DNA of 64,000 nucleotides, taken from IMG/VR virus record IMGVR_UViG_3300042474_001151, positions 48,431-112,430 of that record. One strand, written 5' to 3'. This stretch comes from a virus. The translations under genes were made by a program, and so were the position numbers. This document shows, one piece after another, positions 18,093-50,007 of the stretch. Numbering within the stretch: position 1 is the first letter of the stretch; every line of letters starts with the position of its first letter. A model generated the notes under the pieces. That model was given only the letters and a program-made list of their open reading frames with translations. It searched no databases and had not been told where the DNA came from.

Positions 18093-18818
18093 ATGAATAA
18101 TATAGGATTTGGAATATTTTGTTTTGGTGAAGACTATTATTATAGAGGAACCAAAGAAAAAATAAAAGAATTATTGAAGGTGGGTTTATCTGTATATGTA
18201 CTGACAGATAAACCTGAAGAATTTACAGAAGTAACTGTGATTCAATATGATAGACATTTAAAATCATATTCAGATAAGATGATATTACCAAAATACATCT
18301 TAAAAAATCATGACATCTGTATATTACTTGATGCAGACACACACGTCACAGATTATTCATTTTTAGAATCATTAAAAACATATAATTTTAAGAAAGGTGT
18401 ATCATATATTGATACTTTATTAAATCATAGTGCAAAGAAAGAATTTGTAAAAGACTTAGTGAATGAAACCAATCCTGAATGGAAAACATATGTTGAATAT
18501 GCGTCTAAATTGTATCCACCATTTTTTAATTTTGAAACAATGTGGGAATACTTTTTGGTAATCAATAAAGATGGGTTTGATATGGATTCATTTTATTATT
18601 ATTATGAAAAATTACAAGTAGTAAAAGAATATTCGGACCTACCTTTGAAAAAAGAGATAAATGGTGCGGGAGAAGGAATATCAATACAAATAAGTTGCAA
18701 ATCAGCTAATATGAATGTACAAAGAGATACCGAATTGTATAAATTATTAGAAGGTAAGATGATAAGTATAAGTAGAAGACACACACCACGACATTTGTGG
18801 CCAAATTGGATGAGATGA
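18093..18818 (+). CDS. Putative GT-A-fold glycosyltransferase
   Basis: A 241-residue protein beginning with a strand (IGFGIFCFG) and carrying CILLDADTHV with D80-A-D82, a DxD-type nucleotide-sugar/metal site, after a helix and strand typical of GT-A enzymes. The middle is aromatic (YPPFFNFETMWEYFLV). It looks like small GT8/GT6-type transferases of phage surface-modification clusters; the exact family is not clear. No membrane span, so it should act in the cytoplasm. First gene of the central operon; its end overlaps the methyltransferase start as ATGA. Confidence 0.6.
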   Translation: MNNIGFGIFCFGEDYYYRGTKEKIKELLKVGLSVYVLTDKPEEFTEVTVIQYDRHLKSYSDKMILPKYILKNHDICILLDADTHVTDYSFLESLKTYNFKKGVSYIDTLLNHSAKKEFVKDLVNETNPEWKTYVEYASKLYPPFFNFETMWEYFLVINKDGFDMDSFYYYYEKLQVVKEYSDLPLKKEINGAGEGISIQISCKSANMNVQRDTELYKLLEGKMISISRRHTPRHLWPNWMR

Positions 18819-19543
18819 TAACGAATGATGATTTCATAAAAAAGAATATCACCAACAATGGTGATGAACCGGTACCATATCGTTGGACACACGGTGCAAC
18901 CGATTTACACATGGGTGACGGACTTTTGGTGTATTCTATCATCCAACACATGAGAGCTAAAATTTGCGTCTGTATAGGGTCAGGAGGAGGGTTCATTCCA
19001 AGAATCATGACACAAGCAAGAATTGATTTACATAAACAAAACATATTTGAAGGAAATGGAGACTATAACTGGGGTGACATTGGTACTAGCTATGTCGTTG
19101 ACGCTTGTAATGGTGTTGGCGGCCCAAATGATTTGGATAATGAAGAATCATTCTATCGGACAAATTTTTATCCGAGGTTTATTAAATCGACTTCTGTCGA
19201 CGCGTATTATGACTTTTTTGTTAGACAAGATATTAAAATAGATGTACTATTCATTGATGGTGACCACTCATATGAAGGGGTTAAAACAGATTTTGAATTA
19301 TATTCAAAGATAATGTCAGATAATGGTATAATCATTATACATGACACAGATGAGAACTATGAAGAAACGTTAATTGTTTCCGAAGATTCAAAAAAAGACC
19401 ACCACAAGTTTAACGGACCGGCAATATTTGTTAAGGAACTTGAAAAAAATCCTAACTATAATTTGATTAATTTACATAATTTTCGTATATTAATGGATAA
19501 ACCATCATCAAGTGGTATAACCATTATTAATAAGAAAAAATGA
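18815..19543 (+). CDS. Class I SAM-dependent methyltransferase (Methyltransf_24-like)
   Basis: I choose the ATG at 18815 (ATGA overlap with the previous stop), giving 242 residues; GTG 18797 and TTG 18806 are possible longer starts. CVCIGSGGGFIPRIM is the SAM-binding glycine loop, and VLFIDGDHSYEGVKTDFELY followed by GIIIIHDT is the hallmark of Methyltransf_24/CmcI-like enzymes that often methylate sugars or cell-surface products. Followed by a glycosyltransferase with another ATGA overlap. Substrate unknown; a glycan O-methylation role is inferred from neighbours. Confidence 0.75.
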   Translation: MITNDDFIKKNITNNGDEPVPYRWTHGATDLHMGDGLLVYSIIQHMRAKICVCIGSGGGFIPRIMTQARIDLHKQNIFEGNGDYNWGDIGTSYVVDACNGVGGPNDLDNEESFYRTNFYPRFIKSTSVDAYYDFFVRQDIKIDVLFIDGDHSYEGVKTDFELYSKIMSDNGIIIIHDTDENYEETLIVSEDSKKDHHKFNGPAIFVKELEKNPNYNLINLHNFRILMDKPSSSGITIINKKK

Positions 19544-20391
19544 TTCGTTTAGTTACAGTTATAGGTCACGGAACAAATTTACTACCACATTTTATTAATC
19601 ATTATAAAAAATATGTTGATGAAATAAACATAGCTGTTTATGAAACCGACATGTATCCATCATTAGGTGATGAGATTAAGGAAATAATTAATAATCATGA
19701 TAATGTAAAAATTATCAAGGTTATTAAAAATAGAGTTTTCGATTGGGAGAAAGTCACACAATTATATAATTTTGTTAAAAATACACAACCAAATGATTGG
19801 TGGGTAGTTGCCGATATTGATGAATTTCATTTATATCCCGAAGACGATTTAAGAAAATTAATTAGTAATTGTGATGAGAATGGATGGGACGTTGTGAGAG
19901 GTGGATTCATTGATAGAATAGGTGAAGATGGGAAGTTCTCTGAAATAAAAAAAGATAAACCGATATTTGAACAATTTCCTGTTATGGGATTTTTCAGATA
20001 CCCGATGAGTAAGGCATGTCCTAATAAGATATGCGTAATGAAAGGATATGTTGAAATCACATCAGGTCAACATTATGCTAAAATTGATGGACAAACAACT
20101 TGGAAATGGCAAGGATGGAACCACCCACTAATTAATCCAAATGAATATGTGCAAGTACACCACTTCAAGTGGGATAAAACTTGTATTGATAGGATTAAAT
20201 CAGTTGCTGATGTAAAACAAGAATATGCATACTCAAATGAATATTCAACGATGTACCATAGTCTAAGAAAAAGTAAATTTAAAATTGATGTTAACCATAA
20301 AGATTTTATGATTGAACATTCATACGGAGAACCAGAATTTAAAAGATATAAACAATGGAATAAATTAATTAAAAAAATCATATCAATATGA
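19540..20391 (+). CDS. Glycosyltransferase family 2/92-like
   Basis: 283 residues. LVTVIGHGTNLLPHFINHY at the start and VVADIDEFHLYP (ADIDEF at 91-96) are typical of GT2/GT92-like enzymes in which the D-x-D-E-F segment binds metal and nucleotide sugar. A basic C-terminal region follows. No transmembrane segment. The start overlaps the previous stop by 4 nt and the end overlaps the next ATG, indicating translational coupling. Expected to transfer a sugar in the cytoplasm; donor and acceptor unknown. Confidence 0.7.
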   Translation: MIRLVTVIGHGTNLLPHFINHYKKYVDEINIAVYETDMYPSLGDEIKEIINNHDNVKIIKVIKNRVFDWEKVTQLYNFVKNTQPNDWWVVADIDEFHLYPEDDLRKLISNCDENGWDVVRGGFIDRIGEDGKFSEIKKDKPIFEQFPVMGFFRYPMSKACPNKICVMKGYVEITSGQHYAKIDGQTTWKWQGWNHPLINPNEYVQVHHFKWDKTCIDRIKSVADVKQEYAYSNEYSTMYHSLRKSKFKIDVNHKDFMIEHSYGEPEFKRYKQWNKLIKKIISI

Positions 20392-20639
20392 CAGAAAAAG
20401 AAGAAAAAACGGAACAATTACTTTTAGAACAACGTAAAGTAAAGGCGCTAGAAAAAATTGCTAATTCAATGGACGCATTAACCATTTGGTTTGAAGAAAT
20501 TAATAAGGACGAATGGAGCGATAGACTTCAATTTTATTTACATGAATGGCATAAGGGACAAATTGATAAACAATCCGATTTTAATACAAAAGAAGAAAAG
20601 GTAATATTAGGTAAAAAAGAAAAAAATGACAAAAAATAA
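20388..20639 (+). CDS. Small charged helical protein of unknown function
   Basis: 83 residues, rich in Glu and Lys, predicted mainly helical (TEKEEKTEQLLLEQRKVKALEKIANSMDAL) with a WFEEINKDEW segment. No recognised family. Its ATG overlaps the preceding stop and its 3' end overlaps the next glycosyltransferase by 14 nt, so it belongs to the operon. Could be a coiled-coil partner of the transferases. Confidence 0.6.
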   Translation: MTEKEEKTEQLLLEQRKVKALEKIANSMDALTIWFEEINKDEWSDRLQFYLHEWHKGQIDKQSDFNTKEEKVILGKKEKNDKK

Positions 20640-22050
20640 GTTAGGTATCATAATACCTTATAGGGATAGATACGAACAACTTATTGGATTTAAAAAAACA
20701 CTAATAGAATATCTAAATTCTAAAGGAATTGATTTTGAATTGATTGTTGTTGAACAAGACGATGCCAAAATTTTTAATAGGGGTAAACTATTAAACATAG
20801 GTTTTATTTATGCCAAAAAATTAAAATGTAACTACGTTGTTTTTCATGATGTGGATATGTTACCTTTAGATGTTGATTATTCTTATTCAGAAATACCATT
20901 ATTATTGGCAAGTAATTTTAAAACAACCGACGGAATCAAAAAAGTTTCATCCGACCAATATTTTAGTGGAGTCACTTTATTCCCTATTGAACTTTTTGAG
21001 AAGATAAATGGATACTCAAATGAATATTGGGGATGGGGATATGAGGATGATGATATGTTATATAGATGTCAAATATCTGACATACCATTAGACAAAAAAG
21101 AAATTCCACAAATGGGTGGAAATACTGCGGCATTAAAGTTTAACGGAGAAAATGCATATGTAAAGGGTAAAAATATTATTGGCAATAGTAAACAAATTAC
21201 ATTTTTTGTTACATTTTATCCTGATGAATTAACGTGTAACCATGAAACATACGACGATTCGTTTTCCGTTTTTACAATACCTGGATTTGATTTATCAATC
21301 AACTATAGTTCATATTCAAGATATAATTTTGAAATGTATGATAATAAAAAAAATATCATATATATCAATTCTGACATTAAAAAGAATTACAAGACAAATA
21401 TTGCAGTTACGATAGATTTTAGTAAAAAAGAAATCATAATGTATCAAGACGGTGTTCTTGTTTCCAATATTATATACACTGAAAGGAACTATGATTATAG
21501 AAAGGTAGATAATTTTTACTTAGGTGTTGGTAACCCCGATAGGGAAAAAAACGAAAAATATTTTAAAGGATTAATAAGTTCATTTTCGGCATTTTCTAAA
21601 ATATTAAACGAAAAAGAAATTGAGGAGATATCTAAAAATAAATTTTTTGGACTAACTCAAAATTTTGGAGAATACCAATCATCACACGATTTAAAAGTCT
21701 ATTATGATGCTAAATTTATTAAAGATTACAAGTTAATAGATTTATCTGGTAATGAAAATAATGGAGAAATTGTTAATTGTGAAATGGTTGGTTATTTATT
21801 CGACGAGGTTAAATTAATTGATGTTCCCTTTAAAAAAGAATGTACATTTGAACTTATACCACATGAAGAAAATGGTTACATTAATGGTGGATGGAAAAAC
21901 ATTACAACCAGATATAACCAAATGAGATTTCATAATGAAGTATCAAAAGGACATAAAAACATAAAAGACGACGGATTAAGTAATTGTACATATAAAGAAC
22001 ACAGTTACTCACATGTCAATAATCAAAAACATGTTGTAGTAGGAATATGA
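20626..22050 (+). CDS. GT7-like galactosyltransferase fused to lectin-like domain(s)
   Basis: 474 residues. Residues 1-150 match the GT7/beta-1,4-galactosyltransferase fold: LGIIIPYRDR, NRGKLLNIGF, FHDVDMLP (D75-V-D77), and WGWGYEDDD at 135-143 with the following YRC, the acceptor/catalytic block of the family. After about residue 180 comes a concanavalin/LamG-like part (ITFFVTFYPD, IIMYQDGVLV, GLISSFSAFSKILNEKEIEEI), and LIDLSGNENNGEI near 375 looks like the start of a second one. A transferase carrying a lectin-like module could bind the glycan or fibre it modifies. ATGA overlap with its paralogue. Confidence 0.75.
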   Translation: MTKNKLGIIIPYRDRYEQLIGFKKTLIEYLNSKGIDFELIVVEQDDAKIFNRGKLLNIGFIYAKKLKCNYVVFHDVDMLPLDVDYSYSEIPLLLASNFKTTDGIKKVSSDQYFSGVTLFPIELFEKINGYSNEYWGWGYEDDDMLYRCQISDIPLDKKEIPQMGGNTAALKFNGENAYVKGKNIIGNSKQITFFVTFYPDELTCNHETYDDSFSVFTIPGFDLSINYSSYSRYNFEMYDNKKNIIYINSDIKKNYKTNIAVTIDFSKKEIIMYQDGVLVSNIIYTERNYDYRKVDNFYLGVGNPDREKNEKYFKGLISSFSAFSKILNEKEIEEISKNKFFGLTQNFGEYQSSHDLKVYYDAKFIKDYKLIDLSGNENNGEIVNCEMVGYLFDEVKLIDVPFKKECTFELIPHEENGYINGGWKNITTRYNQMRFHNEVSKGHKNIKDDGLSNCTYKEHSYSHVNNQKHVVVGI

Positions 22051-23459
22051 GTCATAAATTAGGAATCTGTATACCGTACAGAAATAGAAAGGAACATATT
22101 GATAGGTTAATTCCACACCTCTCAACACATTTAACAAATCAAGGAATTGACCATACGTTCTATGTGGGACATCAGATAGACGATAAACTATTTAATCGTG
22201 GAGCAATGAAAAACATTGCATCGCACTACGCTTTTGAAGACGGATGTGATTATATCGCTTGGCATGATGTTGATATGTTAACCTATGGTGAAGAAGGTCA
22301 AATATTAGGTGATTATTCATATCCTGAAGAAACACCAATACATATTGCAACTAAATTATCAAAATATAATTATGGGTTGGGTTATGATCAATACTTTGGT
22401 GGGGTTGTTTTGTTTAATAAAGAACAGGCATATAGAACAAACGGATATTCAAATGAGTATTGGGATTGGGGTCAAGAAGATGACGATTTATTTTGGAGAT
22501 GTTATTTTGAGGGTTTAACTACTGGTAGAATTATAAAAACAGAAAAAGATAAGTTAATTGCAACCTTTAATGGAGATAATTCTGCAATATATGTACCAAC
22601 AAATAGAGAAATTAGTTCATGTTTACATAATGACCACACAATAACATTGACGTTTAGTGCCGACCAACAAGAGGATAAGGTACCAATTTGGTTAGTGGGG
22701 GACGAAAACAAACAATTCATTGAATACCCTTTATTGAGAAAAGATGGAAGTTGGACGTGGGGATTATCGTTTAACAATTCAAGAGCGGTAACAATGACTG
22801 TATTTGATAGAACAAATATGCGACATTATAATTGGGTAAAAAGATTTGAGGGGATGTGGACACAAGTCACGTTGAGTTACAATTCAGAAGAACAAAATAC
22901 GTACTTCTATGTTAATGACGAATTGATATCTCAAATGAATGGATTAAAACAAAATATACCATTTCCAATTAGAGAACAACTAAAAACACATGACGCGATT
23001 AAACCATTTATATTAGGATTTTGTCCTCATGTTAATACAAGATTTAAAGGTAAGATATCCGACTTTAAAATATATAATAAGTTTTTTAACAATATAAATG
23101 ATGTTTACGAAAATACGGAAAATATTGTTTTAGATATGGACATGAATAGTGAACATATTGTTAATCAAAATACTAATTTATCAATCGAAGATATTGAAAT
23201 AATTGAAAATATTATTCCACATAGAAGAGAGGGTAGTTTTTATTGTTTACCGCACGTAGATGAAGGTTTCATGAACGGAAAATGGGCCAAAGGAGAAACA
23301 ACGGCCAGAAATGAAAAACGATTTGTTACCGAAATGCAACAAGGTAAGATAAACTATAAAGAAGACGGACTAAACAAAATTTTAGATGTTTTAGATATTG
23401 ATAGTATCGACGATACGTTGTACCCTAACACTAAATTCATAAATGTAAAAATGAAATAA
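22047..23459 (+). CDS. GT7-like galactosyltransferase fused to lectin-like domain, paralogue
   Basis: 470 residues, a tandem paralogue of the 20626 protein: LGICIPYRNRKEH, NRGAMKNIASHYAF, AWHDVDMLTY (D74-V-D76) and WDWGQEDDD at 139-147. Residues about 195-350 form a LamG-like segment (HTITLTFSAD, WTQVTLSYN, TYFYVNDELI, GKISDFKIYNKFF). The C-terminal motif EGFMNGKW, with NEKRF downstream, is shared with the first copy (ENGYINGGW, NQMRF), so it is part of the conserved core rather than a random tail. Donor sugar unknown. Cytoplasmic by the absence of membrane spans. Confidence 0.75.
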   Translation: MSHKLGICIPYRNRKEHIDRLIPHLSTHLTNQGIDHTFYVGHQIDDKLFNRGAMKNIASHYAFEDGCDYIAWHDVDMLTYGEEGQILGDYSYPEETPIHIATKLSKYNYGLGYDQYFGGVVLFNKEQAYRTNGYSNEYWDWGQEDDDLFWRCYFEGLTTGRIIKTEKDKLIATFNGDNSAIYVPTNREISSCLHNDHTITLTFSADQQEDKVPIWLVGDENKQFIEYPLLRKDGSWTWGLSFNNSRAVTMTVFDRTNMRHYNWVKRFEGMWTQVTLSYNSEEQNTYFYVNDELISQMNGLKQNIPFPIREQLKTHDAIKPFILGFCPHVNTRFKGKISDFKIYNKFFNNINDVYENTENIVLDMDMNSEHIVNQNTNLSIEDIEIIENIIPHRREGSFYCLPHVDEGFMNGKWAKGETTARNEKRFVTEMQQGKINYKEDGLNKILDVLDIDSIDDTLYPNTKFINVKMK

Positions 23460-24874
23460 TGAATTTTAACGAAACTAAAATAAAGTTGGATAAAATTGGT
23501 TGTGGGTTCTGTTTAGCTAAATGGACTCAGGTTACTATGCACTTACACAATGGAATGACACATTCTTGTCATCATCCAGCTCCCCATAAAATAAGTTTAG
23601 AGGAGTTAGAACGAAACCCAACAGCATTACATAATAGTAAGGTAAAAAAACAAGCAAGAAAGGAAATGATGGAAGGTAAACGACCGTCCGAATGTCAATA
23701 TTGTTGGAACATTGAAGACAACTCAACATCATTTTCTGATAGAGTATTTAAATCGGCAGAACCATGGTCCGAACCTCACTTTGAAGATATTAGTAAATTA
23801 CATTGGAGAGAAGACTATATACCGAAATATGTTGAGGTTAGTTTTTCAAATGTGTGTAATTTTAAATGTGCCTATTGTGGTCCACTATATTCATCTAAAT
23901 GGATGGATGAAATTAATAAACACGGGGGATATGAATTACCATCTTCAACATATAATGGGTTAGATGAGATTGACAGAGATAAAACAAAACCATATAAACA
24001 CTCAGAACAAAATCCATATGTTGATGCGTTTTGGGATTGGTGGCCGAAGTTATATGATAATTTAGATACTTTTAGAATTACAGGAGGAGAACCCCTACTA
24101 TCAAAAGATTTTTGGGGTGTATTGGATAATATATTAAACAACGAATACCCCAATAGGAATCTTAAATTGTCCATTAATAGTAATTTAGGTGTTGATGATG
24201 TTTTAATCGATAAATTAATCGAAAAAGTTGGTAAGATTATAGACGAGGACAGAATTAAAGAATGTATAATTTATACATCATGTGACACATACGGAGAACA
24301 AGCTGAGTATATTAGATACGGATTAAAATTCGATACATTAATATCCAATATAGAAAAAATCCTATCAAAATTAAATAAGGTTACAATTGTTGTTATGTCA
24401 ACATTTAATATCTTTAGTGTTTTTTCATATGAAAAATTAATAAAAAAAATATACGAATTAAAGGTAAAATATTATAATCCAAATAGATATTGGAGTTCGT
24501 CAATTATTTTGGATACGTCTTATCTTAGACATCCAAACTTTTTAAGTTTCACATTATTAGCCGATTATATTAATGAAGATTATTTTGAGAGATTTGAAAA
24601 ATATATGAAGTTTAATTCAACATATGATAGTCTTAAATTTAATCCCCCAAAATCGATTAACGATGTTGGATTTTCACTAAAAGAAATTGAGAAGATAACA
24701 AGATTAAAAGATTATTTTATTAACGAATTTAAAAAGGATGACAAATATTATACTAATCTGAAAGATTTTAATAGTTTCATAAATGAATATGAAGTAAGGA
24801 GAGGTTTGAATTGTATTGAATATTTTCCTGAATTAAAATCGTTTATCAAAAAAATTAACGATAATGAAAATTGA
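23459..24874 (+). CDS. Radical SAM protein with N-terminal twitch/SPASM-like Cys set
   Basis: 471 residues. An N-terminal Cys set (C15, C18, C37, C79, C82) looks like an auxiliary iron-sulfur or twitch region, followed by the radical SAM CxxxCxxC at 133-140 (CNFKCAYC) and GGEP at 210-213. It belongs to the twitch-domain radical SAM proteins found in marine phages, whose substrate is unknown. Between two GT-lectin fusions and a lectin-like protein, it probably modifies a protein or sugar in this pathway. TAATG junction upstream, 11-nt overlap downstream. Confidence 0.8.
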   Translation: MNFNETKIKLDKIGCGFCLAKWTQVTMHLHNGMTHSCHHPAPHKISLEELERNPTALHNSKVKKQARKEMMEGKRPSECQYCWNIEDNSTSFSDRVFKSAEPWSEPHFEDISKLHWREDYIPKYVEVSFSNVCNFKCAYCGPLYSSKWMDEINKHGGYELPSSTYNGLDEIDRDKTKPYKHSEQNPYVDAFWDWWPKLYDNLDTFRITGGEPLLSKDFWGVLDNILNNEYPNRNLKLSINSNLGVDDVLIDKLIEKVGKIIDEDRIKECIIYTSCDTYGEQAEYIRYGLKFDTLISNIEKILSKLNKVTIVVMSTFNIFSVFSYEKLIKKIYELKVKYYNPNRYWSSSIILDTSYLRHPNFLSFTLLADYINEDYFERFEKYMKFNSTYDSLKFNPPKSINDVGFSLKEIEKITRLKDYFINEFKKDDKYYTNLKDFNSFINEYEVRRGLNCIEYFPELKSFIKKINDNEN

Positions 24875-27828: not shown

Positions 27829-27844
27829 ATTAGGATTTTATTGG

Positions 27845-27873: not shown

Positions 27874-27885
27874 TGTATAGAATAT

Positions 27886-30454: not shown

Positions 30455-30456
30455 TT

Positions 30457-37381: not shown

Positions 37382-37392
37382 AGATTAAAACT

Positions 37393-40323: not shown

Positions 40324-40327
40324 TAAG

Positions 40328-41053: not shown

Positions 41054-41055
41054 AT

Positions 41056-41084
41056 TTGACATTATCGATTAATTTTATTATATT
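41056..41084 (+). promoter_or_regulatory. Promoter TTGACA-17-TATATT, leaderless layout
   Basis: TTGACA 41056-41061 and TATATT 41079-41084, spacer 17 bp. The next ATG is at 41091, 6 nt after the -10 box, so the predicted transcription start falls on or beside the start codon. No ribosome-binding site is possible in the remaining space. Confidence 0.7.
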
Positions 41085-41090
41085 AAATCT

Positions 41091-42461: not shown

Positions 42462-42673
42462 TAGTAGAGCATAAAAGACATATAGCTAAAACCATCTCAT
42501 ATCGTATTTTAAGTACCCTTATAGGGGTTTTAGTAATGTGGTGGATAAGTGGTTCAATTAAGATAGGAGCTGCATTTGGAGTTGTAGAATTAGTGTATAA
42601 ACCAGTTCAATACTATATTCATGAAAGAGTATGGTATAAATTTATAAAATACGGATTAAAAAAGAAAGACTGA
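42458..42673 (+). CDS. DUF2061-type small membrane protein
   Basis: 71 residues. KRHIAKTISYRILSTLIGVLVMWWISGS forms a membrane segment, then AFGVVELVYKPVQYYIHERVW, the DUF2061 signature (E-x-x-x-K-x-x-x-Y-Y-x-H-E-R-v-W). The family is found in bacteria and marine phages next to sulfur or nucleotide genes; its function is not known. Overlaps neighbours on both sides (ATGA, then TGATG), so it is translated with the two oxygenases. The most likely membrane-bound product of the operon. Confidence 0.8.
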   Translation: MIVEHKRHIAKTISYRILSTLIGVLVMWWISGSIKIGAAFGVVELVYKPVQYYIHERVWYKFIKYGLKKKD

Positions 42674-43233
42674 TGGATAAATTTCATATTATAAAAAATT
42701 TTTTAACCGAAGAGGAATGTTTTAATATTTTAGTAAAATACAAATCTGAATTAAAACTAAAACCTGCCGAGATAGCTAAAATGGGGGGTAATACAATTAG
42801 TGATAAAAGGAGGTCATCCATAGCGTTTATCGATAGTATAAAAACGATAGATGAAAGACTTAATAATATATTAAAGAATACAATACAAATCAAGGGATTT
42901 GAAGTAACAGGTTTAGGTCCATATCAATTTACGGAATATAAAGTTGGTGAACATTACGATTGGCACACCGATTCATCACCCATTGGAGATGAATATAAGG
43001 GTAGATTTTGTTCTATTGTTATTCAGATTAATGATGAATATGACGGTGGATACCTTCAGTTAAAAGATGAGAATGGTGATAATATTCAATTGGATAAAGG
43101 TACGGGAAATATGTATATATTTTATTCAAATATAACTCACAGGGTGGTACCTGTTACAAGTGGCGTGAGATACTCTTTGGTTAATTGGATTTCATTAAAC
43201 CCCATAGAAAACTTTAAAAAAACAATAATATAA
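42673..43233 (+). CDS. Prolyl 4-hydroxylase-like 2OG-Fe(II) oxygenase
   Basis: 186 residues. IIKNFLTEEECFNIL start, YDWHTDSSP (H98, D100), GGYLQL and FYSNITHRVVPVTSGVRYSLVNWISL (H156, R166) match the PKHD/P4HC family of dioxygenases. In phages these may hydroxylate Pro, Lys or other residues in virion proteins, or small molecules. Last gene of the block started at 41091. Confidence 0.8.
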   Translation: MDKFHIIKNFLTEEECFNILVKYKSELKLKPAEIAKMGGNTISDKRRSSIAFIDSIKTIDERLNNILKNTIQIKGFEVTGLGPYQFTEYKVGEHYDWHTDSSPIGDEYKGRFCSIVIQINDEYDGGYLQLKDENGDNIQLDKGTGNMYIFYSNITHRVVPVTSGVRYSLVNWISLNPIENFKKTII

Positions 43234-43251
43234 AATATTCTAAAAATAAGA

Positions 43252-43259
43252 TATTTATA
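43252..43259 (+). promoter_or_regulatory. TATTTATA motif before the Hint-like gene
   Basis: TATTTATA in a 50-bp gap, followed by a second AT-rich stretch (TATAAAACTATAAC), 23 nt before the ATG at 43283. Same octamer as at 10533 and 6089. Promoter role inferred. Confidence 0.3.
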
Positions 43260-43282
43260 TATAAAACTATAACTCATTAGAT

Positions 43283-44734
43283 ATGAAATCACTATTAATC
43301 GCAACAGACTTAATAAAAACAGTCTCAGGAGATATAAAAGTATTGGAAACAAATACAAACGCTCTCGTAAATTATAATTTTAACGACAATATACATTATT
43401 TGGACAATCTTACTACGTTTATCCAAGCCAATCAATTTCAAACGGTACATTGTATATATCCAATTAACTCATCTAATTTTACTAAAAAACTAAAAGAAAT
43501 ATGTGAACCACTAAATATAGAGATTGTTGACCACCTTACGGATGCCGGTTCGGTTACAGTTCCTTACATTGAAGATTCGGAAGATATTTTGATTATTAGA
43601 ATCTCATATGATACAACCGCAATCATTGACGAGGATTATTGTAAAGATAAATTCAAATTACAGAATATTATTAATAATAAGACATATGGTTCTAAAACAT
43701 TTATACCAAACGAGTTAGATAATTTTGAGTTAATACCAGATTTTCAATATTCGGATGATGTACCAAATTTCATTGTAAAAAAGAGATTTCCTAACTACGA
43801 TAGGGAAATTTACCCCAAATTATATAAGATTCAAAATTTGGTGGAATTAAATGAATTAAAGACCACAATAGAATCCGATTGCTACTTACAAGAATTTCAC
43901 CATTCTCAATTGGTAGAAGACAAAAGATGTGTGATTAGAAGTTTAGATCTGTTATATGGTAACAATTTGGACGTATTAAATATTTGTAGTTTTTATAAGA
44001 CAAATCAATTGGCTGAGAATCAATGGGAAAACACATTTAATGAGGATGGGTTGTTGGCTAAAAAAGATAGACCAAAATATATAACAAACACAAATGAAAA
44101 TGCTAGTTCTTTTTGGCCTTATGTTTATGATGTTGATCAAGAATTAATTATGGGTGATGGAGGTAGAAAACCATTTAATGAATTACAAATTGGTAATAGT
44201 GTTAAAACTGTACATATTGATGGGTTAGATTTAGATGAAAGAACTTATAAAATGTTTGAGTGGGTGGGGAATTACAATGATTTCGTATCTAATATATATC
44301 TTAAAGAAACTCAGGTCACATCCATATTTACATCCCCACCAACATCGCAATTATTTTTAAGAGTTACTTTAGACGATGGTGTAACAGAATGGGATGATTT
44401 GAATGAAACACCACTATTAGTAAAGGTTGGTGAAACAATAATTTTTAAGGAGTTCGGAGAACTTCAAATTGGAGATAGTATTGTGACATTTAACTTTGAA
44501 ACTAATTTACCCGAAATTAAAAACGTACAATCTATTGATGTTGTCTTTAAAGATGAACAAGTGTTAGGTTCTATTGATGTTGAACCAGAAGATGTCTATA
44601 TGCCATTAGTATCACAATACATTACAATTATTCAACACAACCAATGTAATAAGGGGTGTAAATCAACAGCATGTGCAGACGCATATTATTGTGGAGACTG
44701 TTCACCTATTTTCTGCGGACCACCCCCAAAATAA
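43283..44734 (+). CDS. Chimera: ATP-grasp-like N-terminus, Hint-like domain, Cys-rich tail
   Basis: 483 residues. About 1-280 is ATP-grasp-like by pattern (FIVKKRFPNYDREI, CYLQEFH, RCVIRSLDLLYG). Residues about 285-452 look like a Hint/intein-type domain: LIMGDGGRKPFNELQIGNSV, VTSIFTSPPTSQLFLRVTLDDG, FGELQIGDSIVTF, ITIIQHNQC, the last matching the intein end H-N-C apart from one inserted Gln. The usual first Cys/Ser is not evident at the start, so splicing is not assured. The tail from 454 holds seven Cys (CNKGC, CADAYYCGDC, FCGPP). Family calls are inference; the whole layout is unusual. Confidence 0.5.
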   Translation: MKSLLIATDLIKTVSGDIKVLETNTNALVNYNFNDNIHYLDNLTTFIQANQFQTVHCIYPINSSNFTKKLKEICEPLNIEIVDHLTDAGSVTVPYIEDSEDILIIRISYDTTAIIDEDYCKDKFKLQNIINNKTYGSKTFIPNELDNFELIPDFQYSDDVPNFIVKKRFPNYDREIYPKLYKIQNLVELNELKTTIESDCYLQEFHHSQLVEDKRCVIRSLDLLYGNNLDVLNICSFYKTNQLAENQWENTFNEDGLLAKKDRPKYITNTNENASSFWPYVYDVDQELIMGDGGRKPFNELQIGNSVKTVHIDGLDLDERTYKMFEWVGNYNDFVSNIYLKETQVTSIFTSPPTSQLFLRVTLDDGVTEWDDLNETPLLVKVGETIIFKEFGELQIGDSIVTFNFETNLPEIKNVQSIDVVFKDEQVLGSIDVEPEDVYMPLVSQYITIIQHNQCNKGCKSTACADAYYCGDCSPIFCGPPPK

Positions 44735-44761
44735 ATTTAAAAATAAAATAAATTATATATT

Positions 44762-44872
44762 ATGTCAATAAAAACTATATTCGCACCCACAGAAGAGGGA
44801 ACTAAAACAGTCGTTGAAACCACAATACAAGATATGGTTTTGACAATCTTGTCAGATGTTCAATCTTCTTAA
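44762..44872 (+). CDS. Small peptide gene (36 residues), unknown
   Basis: ATG at 44762, 27 nt after the Hint-like gene: MSIKTIFAPTEEGTK ... TILSDVQSS, 36 residues, acidic with a helical VETTIQDMVLTIL stretch. No Cys, no clear leader-core split, no match that I recognise. The frame is intact in a 160-bp gap that otherwise has no gene, and its composition looks coding. Confidence 0.4.
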   Translation: MSIKTIFAPTEEGTKTVVETTIQDMVLTILSDVQSS

Positions 44873-44893
44873 TTATTTAATTAGTTCATATCC

Positions 44894-45190
44894 ATGTCAT
44901 CAATAGATATACGAGAAATTACATCAGCTTGGTGGGATTCTTATTTTGCAGATGATAAACAAAAAAAATTAGCAAAACAAAGGTTTAATGTTTGTGAAAG
45001 TTGTCCATCGTTAGAACAAAAATTTAAACAAATAAGAAAAATAACGATTAGCGTTTGTGGTGAATGTGGATGCCCAATCGACAAAAAAATATTTTCAAAT
45101 AAGTTTAATGCATGTCCTTTGGGTAAATGGAAAGAAATAGATGAATCACAACCAGAGTTGTTTAAAATCCGAAAAGATAAAATGTTATGA
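44894..45190 (+). CDS. Zinc-ribbon-type small protein
   Basis: 98 residues. CESCPSLEQ and, later, CGECGCPIDKK ... FNACPLGKW give a CxxC...CxxCxC...C pattern that suggests a zinc ribbon. Similar C-x-x-C-G-C-P-x-x-K-x-x-x-x-x-C-P-x-x-x-W proteins are common in marine phages with unknown role. WWDSYFADDKQKKLAKQRF before it is helical. ATGA overlap with the next oxygenase. Confidence 0.7.
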   Translation: MSSIDIREITSAWWDSYFADDKQKKLAKQRFNVCESCPSLEQKFKQIRKITISVCGECGCPIDKKIFSNKFNACPLGKWKEIDESQPELFKIRKDKML

Positions 45191-45786
45191 ATTACCCCTT
45201 TTATCAAGAAGTTATTTTTACGCAAGAAGAATGTAAAAAAATAATAGAATACTCTAAAGTTTATCCAGCATCTGCTGAAAAAAGAAAATTAGAACCTAAT
45301 ATAAATCTCGAAACAAATCGTGCAGAACAACATATACCATCTATTGATGGAAATAAAAAAGGAAAGGCATTCTTTGTTTATGATATTGTCAGAGAAAAAA
45401 ATACGGAATGGGTTTTTGAAAAACTATTAAATTGGTTTCAAAAAGTTTCAAATATTAAATTAAAAGAAACACCCACACTAAATGGTATGACTTTACTTAA
45501 CTATAAAGTTGGGGATTTTTTTATGAAGCATACCGACATATATAAAAATTTTGAGTGGAGGAGATGGACAATAAACATTCAGTTAGGTAATCAATATAAA
45601 GGAGGTGATTATGTTTTATATTTGGATGATACTGAAATTATTTTGAATAAAGAGATGGGTAATGCAATTGCATATTGGGCTGGTACAGAACACGAAATTA
45701 AAGAAATAAAAGAGGGTGAAAGATGGTCAATTGTGTGTTCGGTAGGAAAACATATGATTATCGAAAACGAAAAAAAGTTATTATAA
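45187..45786 (+). CDS. 2OG-Fe(II) oxygenase (PKHD-like)
   Basis: 199 residues. FTQEECKKIIEYS start, FFMKHTDIYK (H115, D117), GGDYVLYLDD, then WAGTEHEIKEIKEGERWSIVCSVG (H169, R179), the iron and 2-oxoglutarate residues of the P4H-like family. It differs from the 42673 protein at the N-terminus but has the same fold. Substrate unknown. Overlaps the zinc-ribbon gene by 4 nt and lies 1 nt from the sulfotransferase-like gene. Confidence 0.75.
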   Translation: MNYPFYQEVIFTQEECKKIIEYSKVYPASAEKRKLEPNINLETNRAEQHIPSIDGNKKGKAFFVYDIVREKNTEWVFEKLLNWFQKVSNIKLKETPTLNGMTLLNYKVGDFFMKHTDIYKNFEWRRWTINIQLGNQYKGGDYVLYLDDTEIILNKEMGNAIAYWAGTEHEIKEIKEGERWSIVCSVGKHMIIENEKKLL

Positions 45787-45787
45787 A

Positions 45788-46483
45788 ATGTCTTTATTAA
45801 TAAATAATGAATTGATTTGGGTATCAGTTCCAAGATGTGCTAGTCACTCAATTGAAACATCTTTTTACAATTCAAAATTAAAAATAGAACATTACGCCAC
45901 TATTTTTAAGGATTTAGTTCCGACTGATGTTGAATTTAAACATCAACATTACAATTTATATGATTTAAATACTAGATGGTTAAATAAAAAAACAATTAGA
46001 ATCAAACGAGATTGGATGGAACGATGGGTATCTGCGTTAGAACATCTTTGGTTTACTATTGAAAAAAACAATGGAACACCAATTATACCATATAAGGAAA
46101 TTGATAACAATTTTATTTATCGAACGTTCACAAAAAAATTTGGGAATGAATTATACTCTGAAGGGGGGCAATATAAAATATTTTATTACTTAATAAAGGA
46201 TTTTGTTCTAACAGAAAGTTTCAAATTAGGAACGAGAACCGGATTATTATGGTCTCAAAATTATTGGTTAAGTGGTGAAAAAAAGTGTGACTTCGAATTT
46301 GATATATATGAATTAGATAAGTTCGCGGATTTTATTGAAAAAAAGTACGGTGAAAAATTAATTATTGAACATCAAAACAAATCAAAAAAGAAGACAAATA
46401 AAATTGTTATAAACGATGATTTAAAGAATCACATATGGGAAGTTTTTGAATCTCCATTTTATAAATCTTCAAAAATTTTTTAA
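45788..46483 (+). CDS. Sulfotransferase-like protein
   Basis: 231 residues. WVSVPRCASHSIETSF at 11-26 matches the 5'-phosphosulfate (PSB) loop, and RIKRDWMERWVSALEHL the 3'-phosphate block (R-x-x-x-x-R-x-x-S) of PAPS-dependent sulfotransferases. The rest is diverged. It would use the donor made by the APS-kinase-like protein at 41091. The acceptor could be a glycan or Tyr; unknown. Followed by a gap with a strong promoter. Confidence 0.65.
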   Translation: MSLLINNELIWVSVPRCASHSIETSFYNSKLKIEHYATIFKDLVPTDVEFKHQHYNLYDLNTRWLNKKTIRIKRDWMERWVSALEHLWFTIEKNNGTPIIPYKEIDNNFIYRTFTKKFGNELYSEGGQYKIFYYLIKDFVLTESFKLGTRTGLLWSQNYWLSGEKKCDFEFDIYELDKFADFIEKKYGEKLIIEHQNKSKKKTNKIVINDDLKNHIWEVFESPFYKSSKIF

Positions 46484-46495
46484 TTTTTAATAAAT

Positions 46496-46524
46496 TTGAC
46501 AATGTGGACTTTTTTTCGTATATT
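46496..46524 (+). promoter_or_regulatory. Promoter TTGACA-17-TATATT, leaderless layout
   Basis: TTGACA 46496-46501 and TATATT 46519-46524, spacer 17 bp. ATG at 46533, 8 nt after the -10, so the leader would be at most a base or two. Confidence 0.7.
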
Positions 46525-46532
46525 CATATCAT

Positions 46533-46904
46533 ATGATCATTAAAAATAAAATTCAATTAGAGGTAAAATATATAGACGAAACAATGGGTTTCGGTGTTTT
46601 CGCTTCACAGGATATTGACGAAGGTACTATCATTGAAACTTGTTATAGTATTAAAACATACAATCAAACGTTTAACCCGTGTTTTGACTATCTTTTCAGT
46701 TTAAGTAACACAGAATCTTTACTACCTTTGGGTTATGGTTCAATATATAACCACAGTTACACACCAAATATACATTGGAGAGTCGTAAACTACGAAAAGC
46801 CCATCATTGAATTTTTCTCATTAAAAAAAATAAAATCGGGCGATGAGTTGTGTCACAACTATGGTGCTCATTATTGGAAAGTTAGAGAAAAAAAATTACT
46901 ATAA
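46533..46904 (+). CDS. SET-domain protein (putative lysine methyltransferase)
   Basis: 123 residues, essentially a bare SET domain. GFGVFASQDIDEGTII (19-34), YNHSYTPNIHW (N73-H-S to N79, the N-H-S-x-x-P-N block) and GDELCHNYG (103-111, the G-x-E-L-x-x-x-Y-G block) are its motifs; the SAM and lysine channels depend on the N-H-S and Tyr residues, which are present. SET proteins methylate lysines, mostly in eukaryotes, with bacterial and viral examples. Gene start fits the promoter. Substrate could be a virion or host protein. Confidence 0.75.
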   Translation: MIIKNKIQLEVKYIDETMGFGVFASQDIDEGTIIETCYSIKTYNQTFNPCFDYLFSLSNTESLLPLGYGSIYNHSYTPNIHWRVVNYEKPIIEFFSLKKIKSGDELCHNYGAHYWKVREKKLL

Positions 46905-46905
46905 T

Positions 46906-47580
46906 ATGGGAACCCTTTGGACATTTGGAGATTCGTTTACGGCGGGTGATGGATGTGTGGAAAATATACCTATTAGAGATGGTGATTTTAAATATTATAA
47001 CGAATATAAACAATTAGATAGTGATATATGGCCAAACATATTAGGTGAAACTATTAGATATAATGTAAAAAATATGGGAAAAAGTGGGGCAAGTAATGAT
47101 TATATTTTAGATTCTATTATTGATAATTTTAATATGATAACGATGGATGATGTGGTTATAATTGAAAAAACATTTTACCAAAGATTCGATGTCCCTAAAT
47201 TAAATAGTGATGAATTTCAAACAATATATGGTGAAGCTCTTTATATAATGGATACTGATTTAAAAAAAAATAAATATAATAAAGATAAATTAGAGATTGA
47301 AACAATATTAAATTATGGTGTTTTATTTTGTCAAAACTCGCTGTTTCAGGAAAGACAGAACAAACGATTTCGATTTATTGAAACATTATTAAAATTAAAC
47401 GTAAAAAAAATTTTAATTTGGGATATTGATAGTGATTTAAGAAAATCAATTGAAACAATTTCACGACACACAAAAGGTAAAATAAAGGATTATCATTTTA
47501 GTTTTAATGGTCATAAAGAATTTAGTGAACTTTTATATAAAAAACTATACACTAAAGATATTAAACTCACATTAATTTAA
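46906..47580 (+). CDS. SGNH/GDSL-like hydrolase or acyltransferase
   Basis: 224 residues from ATG 46906; an upstream in-frame start at 46843 would lie inside the SET gene and is rejected. LWTFGDSFTAGDGC (block I, S10), MGKSGASNDYIL (block with N) and FSFNGHKEFSELL (C-terminal His, with N in place of D). Block order fits SGNH; the weak final motif makes activity uncertain. 1 nt after the SET stop and adjacent to a radical SAM gene. Confidence 0.65.
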   Translation: MGTLWTFGDSFTAGDGCVENIPIRDGDFKYYNEYKQLDSDIWPNILGETIRYNVKNMGKSGASNDYILDSIIDNFNMITMDDVVIIEKTFYQRFDVPKLNSDEFQTIYGEALYIMDTDLKKNKYNKDKLEIETILNYGVLFCQNSLFQERQNKRFRFIETLLKLNVKKILIWDIDSDLRKSIETISRHTKGKIKDYHFSFNGHKEFSELLYKKLYTKDIKLTLI

Positions 47581-48630
47581 ATGAAAAACAAAATAGATTT
47601 AAAAGATTATGTATGTGGTGTGCCATTCGACTCATTGGAAATACATAATAACCAATATTTTGTATGTTGCCCGTCATGGTTAAGTGTTTCGTTTAAAAGA
47701 GATGATTATGAATTGAATGAAATATGGAATAGTGAACCCGTTCAAAATATTAGAGAAAGTATATTAGATGGTTCATTTAAGTATTGTAATAAAGAACTTT
47801 GCCCATTTTTAAGTAAATTGGTAAATTATGGGGTAGCAACGGGCCCAATTAGTTTGAAATCAAATTCACATATTAATAGTTCTATTATGGAAAATGATAC
47901 TCCTAATATATTAATGATGAATTTTGATAGAACTTGTAATTATAAATGTCCATCATGTAGAGTAGATTTAATCGTTGAAAATGGTCAAGGAATAAAGAGG
48001 GTTGAAAAAACAATTGAAGATATTGATAATTATTATTCTGCAAATGTGAAATCATTATACATAACAGGTTCAGGAGACCCATTTGTATCGGTGGCATTTA
48101 GAAATTATTTAAGAAACTTCAACCCTAAAAAATACCCTAAATTAAAATCGATACATTTACACACCAATGCTTCAATGTGGAATAAAGAAATGTGGGATAG
48201 TATGCCAAACATACACAAATATGTGCGCACTTGTGAAATTAGCATAGATGCTGGAACTAAAGACACTTACGAAAATAAAACAAGATTAGGTGGGGATTGG
48301 GAAAACTTGTTAAATAATCTTAAATTCATAAGTACCTTACCAATAAATGTGAAAACGTCTTTTGTTGTGCAAGATTCCAACTATATGGAAATGGAAACAT
48401 TTTATAATTTAATGTATTCTATATTTGGTAAAAAGGTAAATGTATTTTTTGGTAAGATAACCAATTGGGGAACATTTTCCGATGGAGAATTTAAATTAAA
48501 ACAAGTGTGGGATACAGAACATCCCGAACATCACTTATTCAAAAAAGAGTTTAATAAAATATGGAAAAATCAAAACCTTTTTCATAATCTATATGAGTTT
48601 ATAGATAACACTAAGAAAACTTTAATATAA
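47581..48630 (+). CDS. Radical SAM protein with GSGDP in place of GGEP
   Basis: 349 residues. N-terminal Cys set (C12, C29 and C30, C69, C74) as in the twitch-type enzymes, then CNYKCPSC at 119-126, the cluster motif. The GGEP position reads ITGSGDPFVS, a rare change that should still hold SAM. C-terminal half has LHTNASMWN and EISIDAGTKDTYE, typical strands of the fold. Probably the same general chemistry as the other twitch proteins but a different substrate. Confidence 0.8.
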   Translation: MKNKIDLKDYVCGVPFDSLEIHNNQYFVCCPSWLSVSFKRDDYELNEIWNSEPVQNIRESILDGSFKYCNKELCPFLSKLVNYGVATGPISLKSNSHINSSIMENDTPNILMMNFDRTCNYKCPSCRVDLIVENGQGIKRVEKTIEDIDNYYSANVKSLYITGSGDPFVSVAFRNYLRNFNPKKYPKLKSIHLHTNASMWNKEMWDSMPNIHKYVRTCEISIDAGTKDTYENKTRLGGDWENLLNNLKFISTLPINVKTSFVVQDSNYMEMETFYNLMYSIFGKKVNVFFGKITNWGTFSDGEFKLKQVWDTEHPEHHLFKKEFNKIWKNQNLFHNLYEFIDNTKKTLI

Positions 48631-48634
48631 TTTA

Positions 48635-49201
48635 ATGGTTATAACAATACTCGCTGAACCAAGAACGGGTTCAACAAATTTGGCAGACTGGTTTAAATCA
48701 AATAATGATTTTACCGTTTTACAAGAACCATTAAATAAATATGGAAAATCATATAAAAAAAATAATCCTATTAATACTTGGATATACAATACACCACATT
48801 TATTAATTAAGGAAATATATGACCCAAATAAAGATTTAAGTGAACTAATAGAATTTTCAGATAAAATAATTATTCTTTATAGAGAAAATAAAAAGGAACA
48901 ATTAGAATCTTGGTTAGTTGCGAAGGTGACCAATAATTGGGGAGGTAAATGGGTAAATAGTAAAATTAATATACCCGACAAAGAATTAAAAATTGAGTTT
49001 TTTAATGAAATGGTAAATGGTTTCGAAAAAGAATATAGGTCATGTGATAATATGTTTAAAATATCATATGAAGAGCTTTATTACAATAATGGTTTTGAAA
49101 AAATTGTGAATTATCTTAATATTGATACAGTTAATAATATTGATTTCCCATATGGTCAAAAATATAGGTTGGAAAACATAGAAACAAATAAATTAATATG
49201 A
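48635..49201 (+). CDS. Sulfotransferase-like protein
   Basis: 188 residues. ILAEPRTGSTNLADWF at 5-20 is the PSB loop of sulfotransferases, and IILYRENKKEQLESWL (about 74-89) corresponds to the 3'-phosphate block (l-x-R-x-x-x-x-q-x-x-S). ISYEELYYN near the end matches the late block Y-E-d-L. It is a second, different sulfotransferase type in the window, again without a membrane span. ATGA overlap with the SGNH gene that follows. Confidence 0.7.
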   Translation: MVITILAEPRTGSTNLADWFKSNNDFTVLQEPLNKYGKSYKKNNPINTWIYNTPHLLIKEIYDPNKDLSELIEFSDKIIILYRENKKEQLESWLVAKVTNNWGGKWVNSKINIPDKELKIEFFNEMVNGFEKEYRSCDNMFKISYEELYYNNGFEKIVNYLNIDTVNNIDFPYGQKYRLENIETNKLI

Positions 49202-50007
49202 ATCCATTAAAATATTGGGTCCCCGACACATTCGAAATTTCATCTTACAAATACCCATTAAAAGAAAGAATAAATAAAACTTATACGACCTCCGGTGGGG
49301 ATGATACTGGTAAATGTATTTACACGTACAATGAATTAGGTTTTAGGGGAGACAGTGTGAAAAAAAAAGGATTTAAGATAATGTCAATAGGGTGTTCATT
49401 TACGGAAGGGGTTGGTGTGGACGATACCGAAACTTGGCCGTACCAATTTACTAATTTAATACCAGATGGTGTTAATATGAATTTTGGAACTGGTGGAAGG
49501 AGTAACGATTTTATAACGAGATGTTTATTAACGTATTATGATTTAATAAAACCAGATTTGGTATTAATAATGTATACAAATCCACAAAGAAAAGAAATAT
49601 ACACAAAAGATGGTGGAGTAGAACCATTTATGCCCACTGCCAGTTGGGGTTGGATGGAATTGACCAAAGAAGGACGTGAAGTACAAAATAATTTGGTATC
49701 ACTACAAAACGAAAACGAAGATTTCATAAATTGGTATAAAAATCATTTGCTTATAAAATATTTTTTAGAAACAAAGAAATGTAATTGGGTATGGAATGGT
49801 CATTTTGGTATACCAAACGATTATAATGAATTTAATAGATTTGATGGTGATTACGAAAAACCATTTTTGGATTATGGAGTTGATAAGGTACATCCAGGAC
49901 CAAAACATAATAACGAATATGTTAGACGTTTATTTAATCACATATATATAAATTTTAGAGAGTACTTACCAGAAGACCTAACCCAACCCAAAAAGAGGTT
50001 AATTTAA
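49198..50007 (+). CDS. SGNH/GDSL-like hydrolase or acyltransferase
   Basis: 269 residues. ELGFRGD precedes IMSIGCSFTEGVG (block I, S67), GTGGRSNDFI (block with N), PDLVLIMYTNPQR (block III-like), and VDKVHPGPKHN with the D-x-x-H pair. FrG ahead of block I is frequent in phage and polysaccharide-modifying SGNH proteins. Likely removes or adds acyl groups on a glycan; exact role unknown. Last gene before the second virion cluster. Confidence 0.75.
   Translation: MNPLKYWVPDTFEISSYKYPLKERINKTYTTSGGDDTGKCIYTYNELGFRGDSVKKKGFKIMSIGCSFTEGVGVDDTETWPYQFTNLIPDGVNMNFGTGGRSNDFITRCLLTYYDLIKPDLVLIMYTNPQRKEIYTKDGGVEPFMPTASWGWMELTKEGREVQNNLVSLQNENEDFINWYKNHLLIKYFLETKKCNWVWNGHFGIPNDYNEFNRFDGDYEKPFLDYGVDKVHPGPKHNNEYVRRLFNHIYINFREYLPEDLTQPKKRLI

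What the first reader, a model, noticed from the sequence alone, without database searches (positions are those of the whole stretch)
18093..50007. Protein- or glycan-decoration island flanked by Ser/Thr-rich fibre clusters
About 32 kb of modification genes lies between two clusters of giant Ser/Thr fibres and lectin-like proteins. It includes at least six glycosyltransferase-type genes, six radical SAM proteins, four 2OG oxygenases, a carbamoyltransferase, APS kinase with two sulfotransferase-like proteins, a SET protein, a methyltransferase and three SGNH proteins. The families are known one by one; their combination next to fibres suggests that the virion surface is extensively modified. 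That link is inference.
Basis: partly seen in the sequence, partly recalled or inferred. Interest (0 to 1): 0.75.

Follow-up and report, generated by a model that had tools for sequence, protein, structure and literature searches.

The report
Phage cassette for self-cut cysteine peptides
Between two groups of tail-fibre genes this aquatic phage carries a sugar- and protein-modifying gene island, and inside it a swappable cassette, shared with over 200 uncultured viral contigs, that appears to make a small six-cysteine peptide cut free by its own precursor and altered by neighbouring enzymes; no described system that I could find has this build.

Summary
The island is real (18,093-50,007). Six radical SAM proteins, four 2OG oxygenases, carbamoyltransferase, APS kinase, SET and methyltransferase are confirmed; only 3-4 glycosyltransferases and one SGNH protein have family support. 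Part A (18.1-40.2 kb, glycosyltransferases and radical SAMs) keeps its order and place between fibres in two further phages; such fibre-linked glycan islands are known from pelagimyophages. Part B (40.3-47.5 kb) is new. A 36-52-aa ORF follows in 78/78 loci; 2OG oxygenases, sulfotransferase-like proteins and often a Trp halogenase surround it. In a phage with a 98%-identical backbone, part B is replaced by a distant version while nearby lectin-like proteins stay 90-99% identical. Best reading: part B makes a self-released, enzymatically modified peptide. Cleavage, modification and role are inferred; fibre decoration is unproven.

The parts
18093..40205 (+). Part A: conserved glycan / radical-SAM core (19 ORFs)
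   Evidence: Same order in L016/G001 and L017-L018/G002-G003; 58-99% aa identity to G003, 39-85% to G001
18797..19543 (+). Methyltransf_24 methyltransferase
   Evidence: Pfam PF13578 4.1e-12
19540..20391 (+). GT2-type glycosyltransferase
   Evidence: PF13704 9.2e-7
20626..23459 (+). Two GT7 galactosyltransferase-like proteins, each with a LamG-like domain
   Evidence: PF13733/PF02709/PF13385
23459..24874 (+). Twitch radical SAM protein
   Evidence: NF033640 321.7 bits, cut-off 170
27853..30454 (+). Tandem pair of twitch radical SAM proteins
   Evidence: NF033640 363 and 362 bits, cut-off 170; the adjacent pair also occurs in Bdellovibrionota genomes
31431..32405 (+). Radical SAM protein, distantly viperin-like
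   Evidence: PF04055 4.7e-12; pVip 1.3e-14 but NCBIfam viperin 42.9 bits against cut-off 180
32402..33088 (+). Asp/Asn hydroxylase-type 2OG oxygenase
   Evidence: PF05118 1.8e-11
33075..36587 (+). N-part of unknown family + B12-binding + radical SAM (methyltransferase type)
   Evidence: PF02310, PF04055; TIGR03975 2.7e-37, under its cut-off; N-part is a separate gene in L026 and C-part alone in L019-L025
37393..38541 (+). UDP-glucose/GDP-mannose dehydrogenase
   Evidence: PF03721 1.2e-17, PF00984 3e-17
38541..40205 (+). Carbamoyltransferase
   Evidence: PF16861 1.9e-62, PF02543 5.8e-58
40328..47580 (+). Part B: exchangeable peptide cassette
   Evidence: Median 34% aa identity to G003 over the 7 genes still alignable, against a 98.5% backbone; related gene set in dozens of viral contigs
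41091..42673 (+). APS kinase, nucleotidylyltransferase, AspH-type 2OG oxygenase, DUF2061 membrane protein
   Evidence: PF01583 3.4e-18; TIGR00125 4.2e-5; PF05118 2.5e-11; PF09834 6.2e-16
42673..43233 (+). 2OG-Fe(II) oxygenase
   Evidence: PF13640 5.8e-15
43283..44092 (+). ATP-grasp-like N-domain of ORF 43283-44734 (glutathionylspermidine synthase / YgiC / eukaryotic GSH synthase type)
   Evidence: AlphaFold model mean pLDDT 82.6; Foldseek 7uk8 3.5e-5, 2ioa 1.3e-4, 1m0t 9.2e-4; D9, E22, N24, R106, D110, K166, R219 invariant in 50/50
44120..44641 (+). Hint domain of the same ORF, Cys1 position replaced, ends in invariant His452-Asn453
   Evidence: Foldseek hedgehog autoprocessing 1at0 8.5e-8, TMt 0.82, inteins, BIL; Cys1-equivalent is H/I/V in 50/50, HN in 50/50
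44642..44731 (+). Six-cysteine tail, predicted released peptide QCNKGCKSTACADAYYCGDCSPIFCGPPPK
   Evidence: Six Cys in 46 of 50 aligned members; Cys 21% of tails against 0.6% of the rest; modelled as disordered
44762..44872 (+). 36-aa partner ORF
   Evidence: A small ORF directly downstream in 78/78 loci, 36-52 aa in nearly all (G001's first one, 69 aa, is of another type)
44894..45190 (+). 98-aa Cys-containing small protein
   Evidence: phrog_13558 1.1e-7; beside the ORF 43283 family in 49/54 loci
45187..45786 (+). 2OG-Fe(II) oxygenase
   Evidence: PF13640 2.3e-8
45788..46483 (+). Sulfotransferase-like protein
   Evidence: Family profile against heparan sulfate 2-O-sulfotransferase 1.7e-4; Sulfotransfer_2 in 3/39 members; no significant fold match
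46533..46904 (+). SET-domain protein
   Evidence: PF00856 3.4e-14
46843..50007 (+). SGNH-like protein, radical SAM 47581, sulfotransferase-like 48635, SGNH-like 49198
   Evidence: PF04055 2.4e-8 for 47581; the others by motif and position; 47581 and 49198 are 82.5% and 71.4% identical to G003

Best explanation
The island joins two functions. Part A (18.1-40.2 kb) builds or edits a surface glycan or glycoconjugate. Part B (40.3-47.5 kb) makes a small modified peptide. Its precursor, ORF 43283-44734, is ATP-grasp ligase-like domain + Hint domain + six-cysteine tail. The Hint domain has lost the N-terminal nucleophile but keeps His-Asn, so by asparagine cyclization it should cut only at its C end and free the tail. 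Neighbouring 2OG oxygenases, PAPS-using sulfotransferase-like enzymes (APS kinase nearby) and, in relatives whose tail holds tryptophan, a Trp halogenase would then modify it; the ATP-grasp domain may ligate the peptide or the 36-52-aa partner. The whole cassette is exchanged between near-identical phages, as expected of a factor in receptor use or phage-phage competition. Shown: domain architecture, invariant motifs, gene neighbourhood, exchange. Inferred: cleavage, modifications, substrate of the ATP-grasp domain, and biological role.
For: Family of at least 241 loci plus an S74-fused subfamily. Model pLDDT 82.6; Hint fold (1at0 TMt 0.82) and GspS/YgiC-type ATP-grasp. His-Asn and a Cys just after it in 50/50, variable residue after HN, no Cys/Ser/Thr at the Cys1 position in 50/50, as for BIL-type domains prone to C-terminal cleavage (PMC5874633). 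Six Cys in 46/50 tails; Trp 7.8% of tails against 0.7% of the rest. L082 and L083 carry a second Hint domain after the Cys stretch, matching PF14890/PF01079 over cut-off. Partner ORF in 78/78 loci. Among 54 non-redundant loci: 2OG 52, 98-aa protein 49, sulfotransferase-like 48, a further 2OG-type family 43, Trp halogenase 31. Every locus examined with a halogenase has Trp in the tail, and no record with a Trp-free tail has one. Part B is exchanged between 98.5%-identical phages; a tree places the G000 and G003 precursors in different supported clades.
Against: No experiment. The halogenase-Trp link does not survive correction for relatedness: only 4-5 independent changes, sign test uninformative. 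Some +1 residues such as Pro are poor for Hint chemistry. The sulfotransferase profile resembles carbohydrate sulfotransferases, so its substrate may be a sugar. The ATP-grasp match has low whole-model TM (0.25-0.29), expected for a two-domain query but not decisive. No secretion signal or transporter was identified. Six Cys could simply bind metal. In G000 itself the tail has no Trp and the genome no halogenase.
Confidence: 0.45

Rival explanations
1. Host-surface remodelling: the glycosyltransferases, sugar dehydrogenase, carbamoyltransferase and radical SAMs change the host's O-chain or capsule during infection so that other phages cannot adsorb; fibre and glycan genes lie together because both concern host recognition.
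For: Published reading of the host recognition cluster of pelagimyophages, which likewise mixes tail fibres, glycosyltransferases and radical SAM cassettes (PMC7029224). GT7, UDP-glucose dehydrogenase and carbamoyltransferase are glycan-type enzymes. Relatives of the radical SAM pair occur in Bdellovibrionota, in some loci near a carbamoyltransferase; one more distant locus has a UDP-glucose dehydrogenase homologue.
Against: The Bdellovibrionota loci looked at are not obvious polysaccharide loci. Does not explain the Hint/Cys precursor, its partner ORF or the Trp halogenase of part B.
Confidence: 0.35
2. Virion decoration: the enzymes modify Ser/Thr-rich fibres and lectin-like proteins.
For: Conserved placement between fibres in three phages; S74-like fibre chaperone fused to the Cys-rich part in one subfamily.
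Against: Part B occurs without the fibre in many large phages; lectin-like proteins downstream stay 90-99% identical while the enzymes are swapped.
Confidence: 0.2
3. ORF 43283 is a structural protein whose Hint domain is a dead relic and whose six-Cys tail is a metal- or disulfide-stabilised tip; nothing is released.
For: Cys1 is lost; an S74-like fusion in about 20 loci suggests a fibre-like protein; six Cys suit metal binding.
Against: His-Asn is invariant in 50/50 although the Hint domain is otherwise diverged, which a relic would not keep; conserved ATP-grasp residues; two members place a canonical second Hint domain after the Cys stretch.
Confidence: 0.25
4. The 36-52-aa ORF downstream is the true modified peptide (graspetide-like substrate of the ATP-grasp domain), and the Cys tail has another role.
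For: Present in 78/78 loci, and its sequence type follows the precursor subfamily; ATP-grasp ligases act on short precursors in graspetides (own knowledge).
Against: No conserved Thr/Ser-Glu/Asp core is visible; its conserved part is a helix-like end (IKxKHLS in the main subfamily); does not explain the Hint domain.
Confidence: 0.15

Closest known systems
Host recognition cluster of pelagimyophages and cyanomyophages (PMC7029224)
   Same: T4-like phages; tail fibres, glycosyltransferases, UDP-glucose dehydrogenase and radical SAM cassettes together; hypervariable
   Different: The ATP-grasp/Hint/six-Cys precursor and its cassette are not described there (no halogenase or sulfotransferase mentioned); position relative to VrlC and gp14 not tested here
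Bacterial intein-like (BIL) and hedgehog Hint domains
   Same: Hint fold; C-terminal His-Asn; variable residue after Asn
   Different: Cys1 lost in 50/50; fused between an ATP-grasp domain and a six-Cys tail
Glutathionylspermidine synthase / YgiC / eukaryotic glutathione synthase type ATP-grasp ligases
   Same: Fold; invariant D..ExN near the N-terminus
   Different: No sequence-level family match; fused to Hint and peptide; substrate unknown
RiPP systems (precursor peptide with clustered tailoring enzymes)
   Same: Short Cys-rich C-terminal peptide next to 2OG, sulfotransferase-like, halogenase and radical SAM genes
   Different: The precursor carries its own ligase-like and self-cutting domains; encoded by viruses; no transporter identified; no product known
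Peptidase_S74 tail-spike chaperone proteins
   Same: C-terminal domain of one subfamily (L113, L138, L161-L202)
   Different: Weak match only (E 0.041) and not present in the window's member

Membership tests
Host recognition cluster (pelagimyophage type) | tail fibres together with glycosyltransferase and radical SAM genes | tested here: met
   definition
Host recognition cluster (pelagimyophage type) | hypervariable between close relatives | tested here: met
   backbone 98.5%, core island median 82.7%, part B median 34.4%
Host recognition cluster (pelagimyophage type) | lies between VrlC and gp14 | not tested
   those genes were not identified in this record
Hint / BIL domain | Hint fold | tested here: met
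   1at0 8.5e-8, TMt 0.82; BIL 6y75 7.6e-8
Hint / BIL domain | C-terminal His-Asn | tested here: met
   50/50
Hint / BIL domain | N-terminal Cys/Ser nucleophile | tested here: not met
   H/I/V in 50/50; so full splicing is not claimed
Hint / BIL domain | self-cleavage | not testable with these tools
   needs expression
ATP-grasp ligase (GspS/YgiC type) | ATP-grasp fold | tested here: met
   7uk8 3.5e-5, 2ioa 1.3e-4 (low TM over the whole two-domain model)
ATP-grasp ligase (GspS/YgiC type) | conserved metal-binding residues | tested here: inconclusive
   D9, E22, N24 invariant, but equivalence to GspS ligands is from memory
ATP-grasp ligase (GspS/YgiC type) | sequence-family match | tested here: not met
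   no Pfam or NCBIfam ATP-grasp hit above cut-off; weak RimK hit for L083 only
RiPP | genetically encoded precursor with a distinct core peptide | tested here: inconclusive
   variable six-Cys tail after invariant HN
RiPP | clustered tailoring enzymes | tested here: met
RiPP | modified product | not testable with these tools
   needs mass spectrometry
Twitch radical SAM NF033640 | score over 170 bits | tested here: met
   23459, 27853, 29186 (322-363 bits); 47581 not (55.5 bits)
Prokaryotic viperin | NCBIfam score over 180 bits | tested here: not met
   31431 scores 42.9, 60470 scores 33.7

The most novel reading that the evidence does not exclude
Large aquatic phages carry a so far undescribed class of viral biosynthetic system: a single polyprotein (peptide ligase + self-cleaving Hint domain + six-cysteine peptide) with a dedicated small partner protein and swappable hydroxylating, sulfating and halogenating enzymes, producing chemically elaborate peptides used in host recognition or phage-phage competition.
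Probability: 0.3. Interest if true: 0.92.

Novelty: new variant of a known kind. Interest (0 to 1): 0.75.

Why it matters
If cassette B works as proposed, viruses make modified peptides from a precursor that processes itself, an architecture I found in no family library and no held paper, and one present in hundreds of uncultured phage contigs. It would give a testable chemical product for a large set of unexplained modification genes in aquatic phages, a new natural way to release Cys-rich peptides, and a concrete case of phages with near-identical genomes exchanging a chemical module.

Tried and rejected
Cultured relatives of ORF 43283: none by tblastn with the window's member or with L110. 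Cellular homologues: pattern plus tblastn scan of GTDB genomes found none. A single-sequence scan of viral contigs for ORF 43283 found nothing; only the three-sequence alignment opened the family. Halogenase presence against Trp in the tail looked strong (Fisher p 2e-4) but fails once relatedness is counted: kept as consistent, not as proof. Viperin: rejected for 31431 and 60470 by cut-off. Sulfotransferase fold by Foldseek: not significant, although sulfotransferases are among the few matches; the profile hit is the better evidence. S74 fragment against PDB sequences: nothing; Pfam only 0.041. Hypothesis that part B always accompanies the giant fibre: rejected. Bdellovibrionota loci as a source of function: radical SAM pair shared, but neighbours in L206 and L212 (Lon, patatin, aminotransferase, carbamoyltransferase, amidohydrolase) do not form a clear pathway. 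Literature searches for phage Hint/ATP-grasp systems found none; most subscription journals and preprints are not in that library.
Full report
WHAT THE RECORD IS. The window is positions 48431-112430 of a 176,430-base virus record, possibly a fragment. G+C is 32%. A conserved protein outside the island (58955-59719) has relatives in 123 phage records, all cyanophages, at about 30% identity: a distant T4-like phage. Several small proteins outside the window start like Bacteroidota lipoproteins, which makes such a host possible; this is inference.

THE OBSERVATION. The island is there. Family searches confirm six radical SAM proteins, four 2OG oxygenases, the carbamoyltransferase, APS kinase, SET protein and methyltransferase. 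Three of the radical SAM proteins are twitch-type and score 322-363 bits against a cut-off of 170. The claims of six glycosyltransferases and three SGNH proteins are only partly supported by families (three to four, and one). The sulfotransferase claim gains support from the family of 45788, whose profile matches heparan sulfate 2-O-sulfotransferase (1.7e-4).

CONSERVATION. Searching viral contigs with the 1170-aa B12 radical SAM protein gave eleven loci. Two further phages, G001 and G003 (G002 nearly the same as G003), hold the island in the same order, beginning after lectin-like homologues of 16082-17898 (visible in G001) and ending before homologues of the giant fibre 50062. Compared gene by gene, the G000-G003 backbone is 98.5% identical (median), part A is 58-99%, and part B (40.3-47.5 kb) is 22-58% for six of the seven genes still alignable (the nucleotidylyltransferase is 82%), others being replaced. 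Downstream lectin-like proteins stay 90-99% identical. Part B is therefore exchanged as a block.

PART A. Glycosyltransferases, UDP-glucose dehydrogenase, carbamoyltransferase and radical SAM proteins beside fibres match the published host recognition cluster of pelagimyophages, including its radical SAM cassettes; there the authors favour modification of the host O-chain (PMC7029224). A smaller version (two twitch radical SAMs, 30457, the AspH-type oxygenase, the N-part of 33075) occurs at 38-54% identity in G008. The adjacent twitch pair also occurs in Bdellovibrionota. Part A is a member of a known kind; whether it acts on virion or host is open.

PART B. ORF 43283-44734 had no hit in Pfam, NCBIfam, PHROGs or PADLOC, none in cultured phages, and its family none in GTDB genomes. 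An alignment with its counterparts in G001 and G003 found 241 related loci in IMG/VR, of which 80 were kept. An AlphaFold model from 50 members has mean pLDDT 82.6. Foldseek matches its second domain to hedgehog and intein Hint domains (1at0 TMt 0.82) and its first to glutathionylspermidine synthase, YgiC and yeast glutathione synthase, that is, ATP-grasp ligases. The Hint domain ends in His-Asn in 50/50, with a variable next residue and then Cys; the position of the usual N-terminal Cys is H, I or V in 50/50. A review describes bacterial intein-like domains lacking the C-flanking nucleophile as prone to C-terminal cleavage (PMC5874633). After His-Asn comes a short tail with six cysteines in 46/50; Trp is 7.8% of tails against 0.7% of the rest. 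In L082 and L083 a second, canonical Hint domain follows the Cys stretch, and in about twenty loci a longer Cys-rich stretch is followed by an S74-like fibre chaperone domain.

NEIGHBOURHOOD. Directly downstream of the precursor a small ORF, nearly always 36-52 aa, was found in 78/78 loci; its sequence type follows the precursor subfamily. Among 54 non-redundant loci, 2OG oxygenases occur in 52, the 98-aa Cys protein in 49, sulfotransferase-like proteins in 48, another 2OG-type family in 43, a Trp halogenase (PF04820, 1.2e-87) in 31; APS kinase and nucleotidylyltransferase lie upstream in many loci that reach that far. The cassette appears in phage records of up to 289 kb, in several away from fibres and once inverted.

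HALOGENASE AND TRYPTOPHAN. Of loci with enough flank, 25/25 with a halogenase have Trp in the tail; all six tails without Trp lack it, and whole-record searches agree. On a tree of the precursor without its tail, however, halogenase changes only about five times, so the association is not independent evidence. The same tree places G000 and G003 in different supported clades, confirming exchange.

MECHANISM. Best reading: translation gives a ligase-Hint-peptide polyprotein; Asn cyclization frees the peptide; neighbouring enzymes hydroxylate, sulfate or halogenate it; the ATP-grasp domain joins it to something, perhaps the small partner. The block exchange suggests a role in host recognition or competition. 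Sequence architecture, invariance, neighbourhood and exchange are shown; all chemistry is inferred. A silent structural protein with a metal-binding tip remains the main alternative.

VERDICT. The unreported precursor in part B is the surprising element.

Noticed in passing
window 60470-61471: A seventh radical SAM protein outside the island, next to a conserved phage protein of phrog_1458/36869 (61468-62508), conserved at 87-92% in relatives.
   Followed up: partly
genome 113.7-125.7 kb (about 65.3-77.3 kb in window numbering, outside the window): A second, minus-strand block of sugar genes (epimerase-like, glycosyltransferase-like proteins) whose middle is completely different in G003.
   Followed up: partly
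genome 161.7-163.3 kb: Two more sulfotransferase-like ORFs (KGRCGSHS / GRSGTTS motifs) far from the island, related to those in the cassette.
   Followed up: no
window 9746-10495: LamG-like protein ending in a Cys-rich tail DCGYGCQLYNYDPGCTAC, reminiscent of the six-Cys tails but without a Hint domain.
   Followed up: no
L044-L048 (G005, 81.5 kb): A viral contig with 15 radical SAM matches in 81 kb.
   Followed up: no
L203-L213, L222-L223: Tandem twitch radical SAM pairs homologous to 27853/29186 recur in Bdellovibrionota genomes.
   Followed up: partly
window 33075-36587: The 1170-aa B12 radical SAM protein is a fusion: its N-part is a separate gene in G008 and its C-part stands alone in G004-G007.
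   Followed up: partly
G001 (locus L016 record, precursor ORF): The G001 precursor holds only a very short stretch KCTWSGFC between its two Hint domains, and the second lacks the terminal His-Asn.
   Followed up: no
genome 138.0-138.7 kb: IscU-like and IscA-like iron-sulfur assembly genes, fitting the many radical SAM proteins.
   Followed up: no
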